Shown one piece after another: positions 54,592-54,746 of a stretch of 64,000 bases of DNA. How positions within the stretch are numbered: position 1 is the stretch's first letter; every line of letters starts with the position of its first letter. The position numbers and the translations under genes were made by a program. Origin of the DNA: Candidatus Aminicenantota bacterium (GTDB lineage: Bacteria; Acidobacteriota; Aminicenantia; Aminicenantales; Aminicenantaceae). The stretch spans positions 1 to 64,000 of the forward strand of contig JAFGMO010000082.1 in the NCBI GenBank assembly GCA_016927475.1, read 5' to 3'. The notes under the pieces were generated by a model, which saw only the letters and a program-made list of their open reading frames with translations, ran no database searches and had not been told where the DNA came from.

Positions 54592-54640
54592 TGTTTCCTC
54601 CTTTTTATTTTTTCAACATTGTCTTCACTTATATATTTAA

Positions 54641-54656
54641 GCAAGGAACGTGCCAA
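54641..54656 (-). promoter_or_regulatory. Sigma-54 (RpoN) promoter -24/-12
   Basis: Minus strand TTGGCACGTTCCTTGC(TT): GG-N10-GC spacing and near-perfect YTGGCACGrNNNTTGCW match, ~50 bp upstream of the 49-aa ORF. Confidence 0.8.
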
Positions 54657-54732
54657 GTGGACTAATCCGGGGGTTTGCTCGAGTGGCGGGAATCGGAATG
54701 AAATAAAGAGTGTCTGGGTGAGAACAAAATGT

Positions 54733-54746
54733 GTCCGAATACGGAC
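54733..54746. promoter_or_regulatory. Palindrome, candidate enhancer-binding (UAS) site for the sigma-54 promoter
   Basis: GTCCG AATA CGGAC, ~77 bp upstream of the -24 element. Confidence 0.4.

What the first reader, a model, noticed from the sequence alone, without database searches (positions are those of the whole stretch)
54592..54746. Textbook sigma-54 promoter with an upstream palindrome driving the 49-aa peptide
Minus-strand TTGGCACGTTCCTTGCTT (54656-54639) fits the RpoN -24/-12 consensus with exact GG-N10-GC spacing, ~50 nt upstream of the ORF. The palindrome GTCCGAATACGGAC (54733-54746) lies about 80 bp further up, where enhancer-binding proteins dock. The paralogous 62-aa ORF lacks such a site, so the copies appear differently regulated.
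Basis: partly seen in the sequence, partly recalled or inferred. Interest (0 to 1): 0.72.

Follow-up and report, generated by a model that had tools for sequence, protein, structure and literature searches.

The report
Sigma-54 peptide gene in exporter regulon
A gene for a tiny membrane peptide carries the same genetic switch (a sigma-54 promoter plus a pair of activator-binding sites) that related bacteria put in front of cell-envelope exporter genes, and genome comparison points to the two-component regulator that most likely operates it.

Summary
TGGCACGTTCCTTGCT (54655-54640, minus) is a near-perfect sigma-54 -24/-12 element upstream of a 49-aa ORF; rpoN is in the genome; the 62-aa paralogue lacks such a site. 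The palindrome is real but is one half of a tandem operator: CGTCCGTATTCGGACA (54747-54732) and TGTTCTCACCCAGACA (54726-54711), 21 bp apart, ending 55 bp before -24. The same tandem occurs at 87 places in 41 related genomes, with no match to the reversed control pattern, mostly before sigma-54 promoters at preferred spacings (about 41 and 53 bp). Downstream genes include MacB/FtsX-type permeases, PadR-permease operons and a HlyD adaptor. The operator also lies in the control region of one NtrC-family response regulator, and the palindrome is about 60-fold enriched upstream of that regulator's orthologues in other phyla. Best reading: this regulator activates the 49-aa gene as part of an envelope-export regulon. 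The peptide belongs to an undescribed, lineage-restricted family of one-helix membrane peptides; 6 of 65 copies examined carry such a promoter. Sigma-54 control of FtsX-like permeases was reported in 2025; I found no report of this operator, regulator assignment or peptide family. No step is experimental, and what the peptide does is unknown.

The parts
54640..54655 (-). sigma-54 -24/-12 promoter element TGGCACGTTCCTTGCT
   Evidence: Score 18.7 against null 99.5% of 12.9; 14 strict sites in the genome against 2 reversed
54732..54747 (-). operator site 1 (distal), CGTCCGTATTCGGACA, contains the perfect palindrome GTCCGTATTCGGAC 54733-54746
   Evidence: Palindrome at 11 genome places against 1 reversed; matches the tandem consensus
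   Evidence: Same offset as other tandem operators; the joint site is the best in the 64-kb window, 22.5-23.0 against 7.1 for the next
54597..54601 (-). ribosome-binding site GGAGG of the 49-aa ORF
   Evidence: read directly from the sequence
54442..54591 (-). 49-aa ORF, one predicted transmembrane helix with a cationic amphipathic tail
   Evidence: 48 homologous copies found in relatives, third codon positions vary most across the family; no Pfam, NCBIfam or PHROG family
54956..55144 (-). 62-aa paralogue without sigma-54 site or operator
   Evidence: 55% identity to the 49-aa peptide; best upstream sigma-54 score -0.5
54783..54828 (.). hairpin terminator between the 62-aa gene and the 49-aa promoter (T run on the minus strand)
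   Evidence: Fold -26.6 kcal/mol, followed by T8
54264..54321 (.). long inverted repeat downstream of the 49-aa ORF; possible mRNA end, no adjacent T run
   Evidence: Fold of the minus strand -29.3 kcal/mol

Best explanation
The 49-aa gene is transcribed from a sigma-54 promoter. It is switched on by an NtrC-family response regulator (G000:C48:59301-60656) that binds the tandem operator at 54711-54747 and loops to the promoter. Shown: promoter and operator match a recurrent genome-wide arrangement, and that arrangement is tied to this regulator by its position and by its distribution among genomes. Inferred: binding and activation themselves. The regulon consists largely of MacB/FtsX-type ABC permeases, PadR-permease operons and a HlyD-ABC-MacB-outer-membrane-factor locus, so the peptide is most likely made during the same envelope or export response. 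What it does there (membrane-stress peptide, small partner of a permease, or exported peptide) is inference only.
For: Promoter and rpoN. Tandem operator: 110 strand-specific matches at 87 places in 41 genomes, none in the reversed control. Of 103 oriented operators in DNA read here, 73 have a sigma-54 site within 150 bp, with spacing peaks at 40-42 and 51-55 bp; the window's is 55. The window operator scores 22.5-23.0, against 12.9 for the best of 2 Mb of simulated sequence. 14 of 15 genomes with the regulator orthologue have the operator, 3 of 26 without (Fisher p 2.6e-7). The operator lies between the regulator and the divergent HlyD locus in at least ten genomes. In named genomes from other phyla, mostly Bacteroidota, the palindrome is 1.34/kb in the 450 bp upstream of the regulator against 0.022/kb elsewhere; none near five paralogous regulators. 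Peptide copies in G012, G016 and G005 have the same promoter and operator; G336 and G338 were found afterwards.
Against: Site 1 starts with C instead of T and site 2 keeps only its outer triplets, so the window operator scores below the 5th percentile (29.4) of the training operators, which were chosen by the strict pattern. G336 has promoter and operator but no regulator orthologue was found in that 81%-complete genome. In the window's own genome the regulator-locus operator lies about 180-220 bp from its sigma-54 sites, outside the usual spacing. Only 6 of 65 peptide copies have such promoters. Genomes related by descent are not independent in the Fisher test.
Confidence: 0.8

Rival explanations
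1. The promoter is a real sigma-54 promoter but another of the genome's many bEBPs (for example a NifA- or NtrC-like one that also uses TGT-N10-ACA sites) activates it.
For: NifA sites are TGT-N10-ACA (own knowledge). The genome has many bEBP-like matches: 10 at E up to 1e-60. G336 has the operator without a detected orthologue.
Against: The operator tracks one orthologue group and lies in that regulator's own control region across phyla, and is absent near five paralogues.
Confidence: 0.12
2. Chance: a good sigma-54 match and an unrelated palindrome happen to lie near each other.
For: Two or so strict sigma-54 patterns are expected in the genome by the reversed control, and the site departs from the consensus.
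Against: The joint tandem score is far outside simulated sequence and the window background; spacing fits the regulon peak; homologous genes in other genera have the same layout.
Confidence: 0.03
3. The palindrome is a small intrinsic terminator rather than a protein-binding site.
For: A simple scan lists it as terminator-like on the minus strand.
Against: Five-pair stem with a poor T tail; a far stronger terminator lies just upstream; the sequence is conserved as a paired operator with fixed offset.
Confidence: 0.02

Closest known systems
sigma-54 regulation of FtsX-like/COG0577 antimicrobial-peptide-type ABC permeases (PMC12316311, 2025)
   Same: sigma-54 promoters in front of FtsX-like permease genes in several phyla
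   Different: A text search of that paper's main text found no mention of upstream activator sites or inverted repeats, so the tandem operator, the regulator assignment and the small peptide appear not to be described there
NtrC-family two-component bEBPs (ZraR, NtrC1, AtoC, PrsR)
   Same: Response_reg, Sigma54_activat and HTH_8 domains in that order; closest solved relatives are NtrC-family regulators and ZraR
   Different: Below every listed NCBIfam equivalog cut-off shown, best PrsR 408 against 502.6; linked to a HlyD-ABC-MacB locus
NifA upstream activator sites (TGT-N10-ACA)
   Same: same outer triplets and spacing, distal to a sigma-54 promoter (own knowledge)
   Different: inner bases CCG/CGG conserved, strict tandem with 21-bp offset; regulator has a receiver domain
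ADOP / PadR permease operons (TIGR03434, TIGR03433)
   Same: regulon operons pair a PadR protein with a MacB_PCD/FtsX permease
   Different: scores are well below the NCBIfam cut-offs, 293 against 622 and 90 against 102

Membership tests
sigma-54 promoter | GG and GC dinucleotides at -24/-12 with 10-bp spacing in a TGGCAC...TTGC context | tested here: met
sigma-54 promoter | rpoN in the genome | tested here: met
sigma-54 promoter | transcript start and RpoN dependence | not testable with these tools
   needs 5' end mapping and an rpoN mutant or reporter
bEBP upstream activator site | dyad-symmetric site, 60-150 bp upstream, recurring before other sigma-54 promoters of one genome | tested here: met
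bEBP upstream activator site | bound by a named regulator | not testable with these tools
   only linkage by locus, phylogeny and co-occurrence
NtrC-family response regulator (for G000:C48:59301-60656) | receiver, sigma-54 interaction AAA+ and Fis-type HTH domains | tested here: met
NifA | equivalog score and no receiver domain | tested here: not met
   321.5 against cut-off 528.85; Response_reg present
PrsR (PEP-CTERM response regulator) | TIGR02915 cut-off | tested here: not met
   408.2 against 502.6
ADOP permease TIGR03434 (PadR-linked permease of the regulon) | subfamily cut-off | tested here: not met
   293.1 against 622.3; MacB_PCD and FtsX domains present
any described small-protein family (49-aa peptide) | match in Pfam, NCBIfam or PHROGs | tested here: not met
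   (only chance-level PHROG hit, E 0.044)

The most novel reading that the evidence does not exclude
The 49-aa peptide is an exported or membrane-inserted peptide handled by the MacB/HlyD-type exporters of its own regulon, so that the kinase-regulator pair senses and clears an endogenous peptide.
Probability: 0.1. Interest if true: 0.75.

Novelty: new member of a known kind. Interest (0 to 1): 0.5.

Why it matters
It gives a concrete, testable operator and regulator for a sigma-54 response that spans several phyla and whose existence was noticed only recently through its permease genes. It also places an undescribed small-peptide family inside that response in at least some genera, which is a rare handle on the function of such peptides.

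Tried and rejected
Collection search with the peptide alignment failed because no stretch was conserved enough. A first tandem pattern was written with the wrong spacer (9-10 instead of 10-11) and undercounted; it was repeated correctly. An earlier count gave 126 matches; the table sums to 110 strand-specific matches at 87 places, and the report uses those. Pattern searches with the loose palindrome returned many coding-region chance matches in GC-rich relatives. Terminator reading of the palindrome rejected. The association between sigma-54-driven peptide copies and the regulator alone is weak (4 of 24 against 0 of 24, p 0.055) and is not relied on. Literature searches for the combination found nothing beyond PMC12316311.

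Full report
Observation. The minus strand carries TGGCACGTTCCTTGCT at 54655-54640, 64 bases upstream of the start of a 49-aa ORF (54591-54442) with a GGAGG ribosome-binding site. On an approximate sigma-54 matrix it scores 18.7; random 300-bp stretches of related DNA reach 12.9 at the 99.5th percentile. The strict pattern occurs 14 times in the genome and 2 times reversed. rpoN is present. The 62-aa paralogue (55144-54956, 55% identical) has neither promoter nor operator and is cut off from the 49-aa gene by a strong terminator.

The operator is a pair. Comparing the window with other sigma-54 promoters of the genome showed that the palindrome is the distal of two sites: CGTCCGTATTCGGACA (54747-54732) and TGTTCTCACCCAGACA (54726-54711), 21 bp start to start. 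The general form is TGTnC-N6-GnACA, N5, TGT-N10/11-ACA. In 41 related genomes it has 110 strand-specific matches at 87 places and none for the reversed pattern. Of 103 oriented operators in the DNA read here, 73 have a sigma-54 site of score 11 or more within 150 bp; the distances cluster at 40-42 and 51-55 bp, about one helical turn apart. The window's distance is 55. Scored with a matrix trained on 72 other operators, the window site reaches 22.5-23.0; the next best place in the 64-kb window has 7.1 and the best of 2 Mb of simulated sequence 12.9. It is nevertheless a weak member: the training operators, selected by the strict pattern, lie mostly above 29.

The regulon. Genes after these promoters include MacB_PCD/FtsX permeases, PadR-permease operons and a HlyD adaptor; a crude N-terminal motif count gives at least 33 of 73 (domains). 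Other members are TAT-signal proteins and a conserved protein of about 90 aa.

The regulator. In G012 the operator lies between a HlyD gene and a divergent NtrC-family response regulator followed by its histidine kinase. The orthologue group (74-82% identity to the G012 protein for the full-length members, next paralogues at most 46%) is present in 15 of 41 genomes, including the window's (G000:C48:59301-60656). The intergenic operator is conserved in at least ten of them, next to HlyD, ABC ATPase, MacB/FtsX permease and outer-membrane-factor genes. Fourteen of the 15 genomes with the regulator have the operator against 3 of 26 without (p 2.6e-7; genomes are not independent). One of the three exceptions, G038, has the operator in front of a HlyD homologue in a 70%-complete genome. 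In 78 loci of named genomes from other phyla, mostly Bacteroidota, the palindrome is found 1.34 times per kb in the 450 bp upstream of the regulator and 0.022 per kb elsewhere; tandem copies with the 21-bp offset occur there too, e.g. Pontibacter, Runella, Chitinophaga barathri. Five paralogous regulators have no palindrome nearby.

The peptide. Homologues occur in 35 of 41 relatives at a loose cut-off, often in several copies, and at a strict one in 30 of 38 genomes of the family; in a sample of 297 genomes of the phylum all 16 positives are in the same class. The family has a basic start, one hydrophobic helix and a conserved tail (K.GK.AGYEII.N; alignment); the tail is amphipathic by hydrophobic moment (0.5). 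Third codon positions vary most (0.605 against 0.399 and 0.230), as in a coding sequence. Promoter plus operator was first seen in 4 of 48 copies, in four genera, and then in 2 of 17 further copies: G336 with a full tandem, G338 with a weaker promoter (14.1) and less regular sites. G338 has the regulator; in G336 (81% complete) it was not found.

Mechanism and confidence. Regulation by this response regulator through sigma-54: 0.8. Role of the peptide: unknown; membership in an export or envelope response is the only clue. Sub-threshold similarity of the permeases to the darobactin exporter permease DarB fits a peptide-export theme but is weak.

Known or new. Sigma-54 control of FtsX-like permeases was reported in 2025 for gammaproteobacteria, Opitutia and Bacteroidia (PMC12316311), without operator or regulator as far as the text search shows. 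The present case adds an operator, a candidate regulator and a peptide. The library holds only open-licence papers, so absence of reports is not proof of novelty.

Noticed in passing
51127-54081 (minus): 984-aa protein with seven two-component-regulator propeller repeats, Y_Y_Y and GGDEF domains (diguanylate cyclase), directly downstream of the 49-aa gene and separated from it by the inverted repeat 54264-54321.
   Followed up: partly
L292 (G000:C100), L169, L296, L160:12510-12785: A conserved protein of about 90 aa (MREVILQIPTxEAEQNIDIDVKINGKKRTL...) also follows the tandem operator and sigma-54 promoter in three genomes, and lies inside the HlyD locus in a fourth.
   Followed up: no
L125:9194-9832, L175, L193, L306, L315: TAT-signal proteins beginning (S)RRDFLTKAVPACAV or similar are recurrent members of the predicted regulon.
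   Followed up: no
L005, L016, L032-L051 and others: The small-peptide family is multicopy in some genomes (six copies in G005, four in G012, G022 and G336), and most copies have no sigma-54 promoter; what drives those is unknown.
   Followed up: partly
L062 (G000:C75:66110-66125): A strict sigma-54 site drives a pilin-like gene next to a paralogous NtrC-family regulator (C75:66271-67620), probably a PilR-type pair.
   Followed up: no
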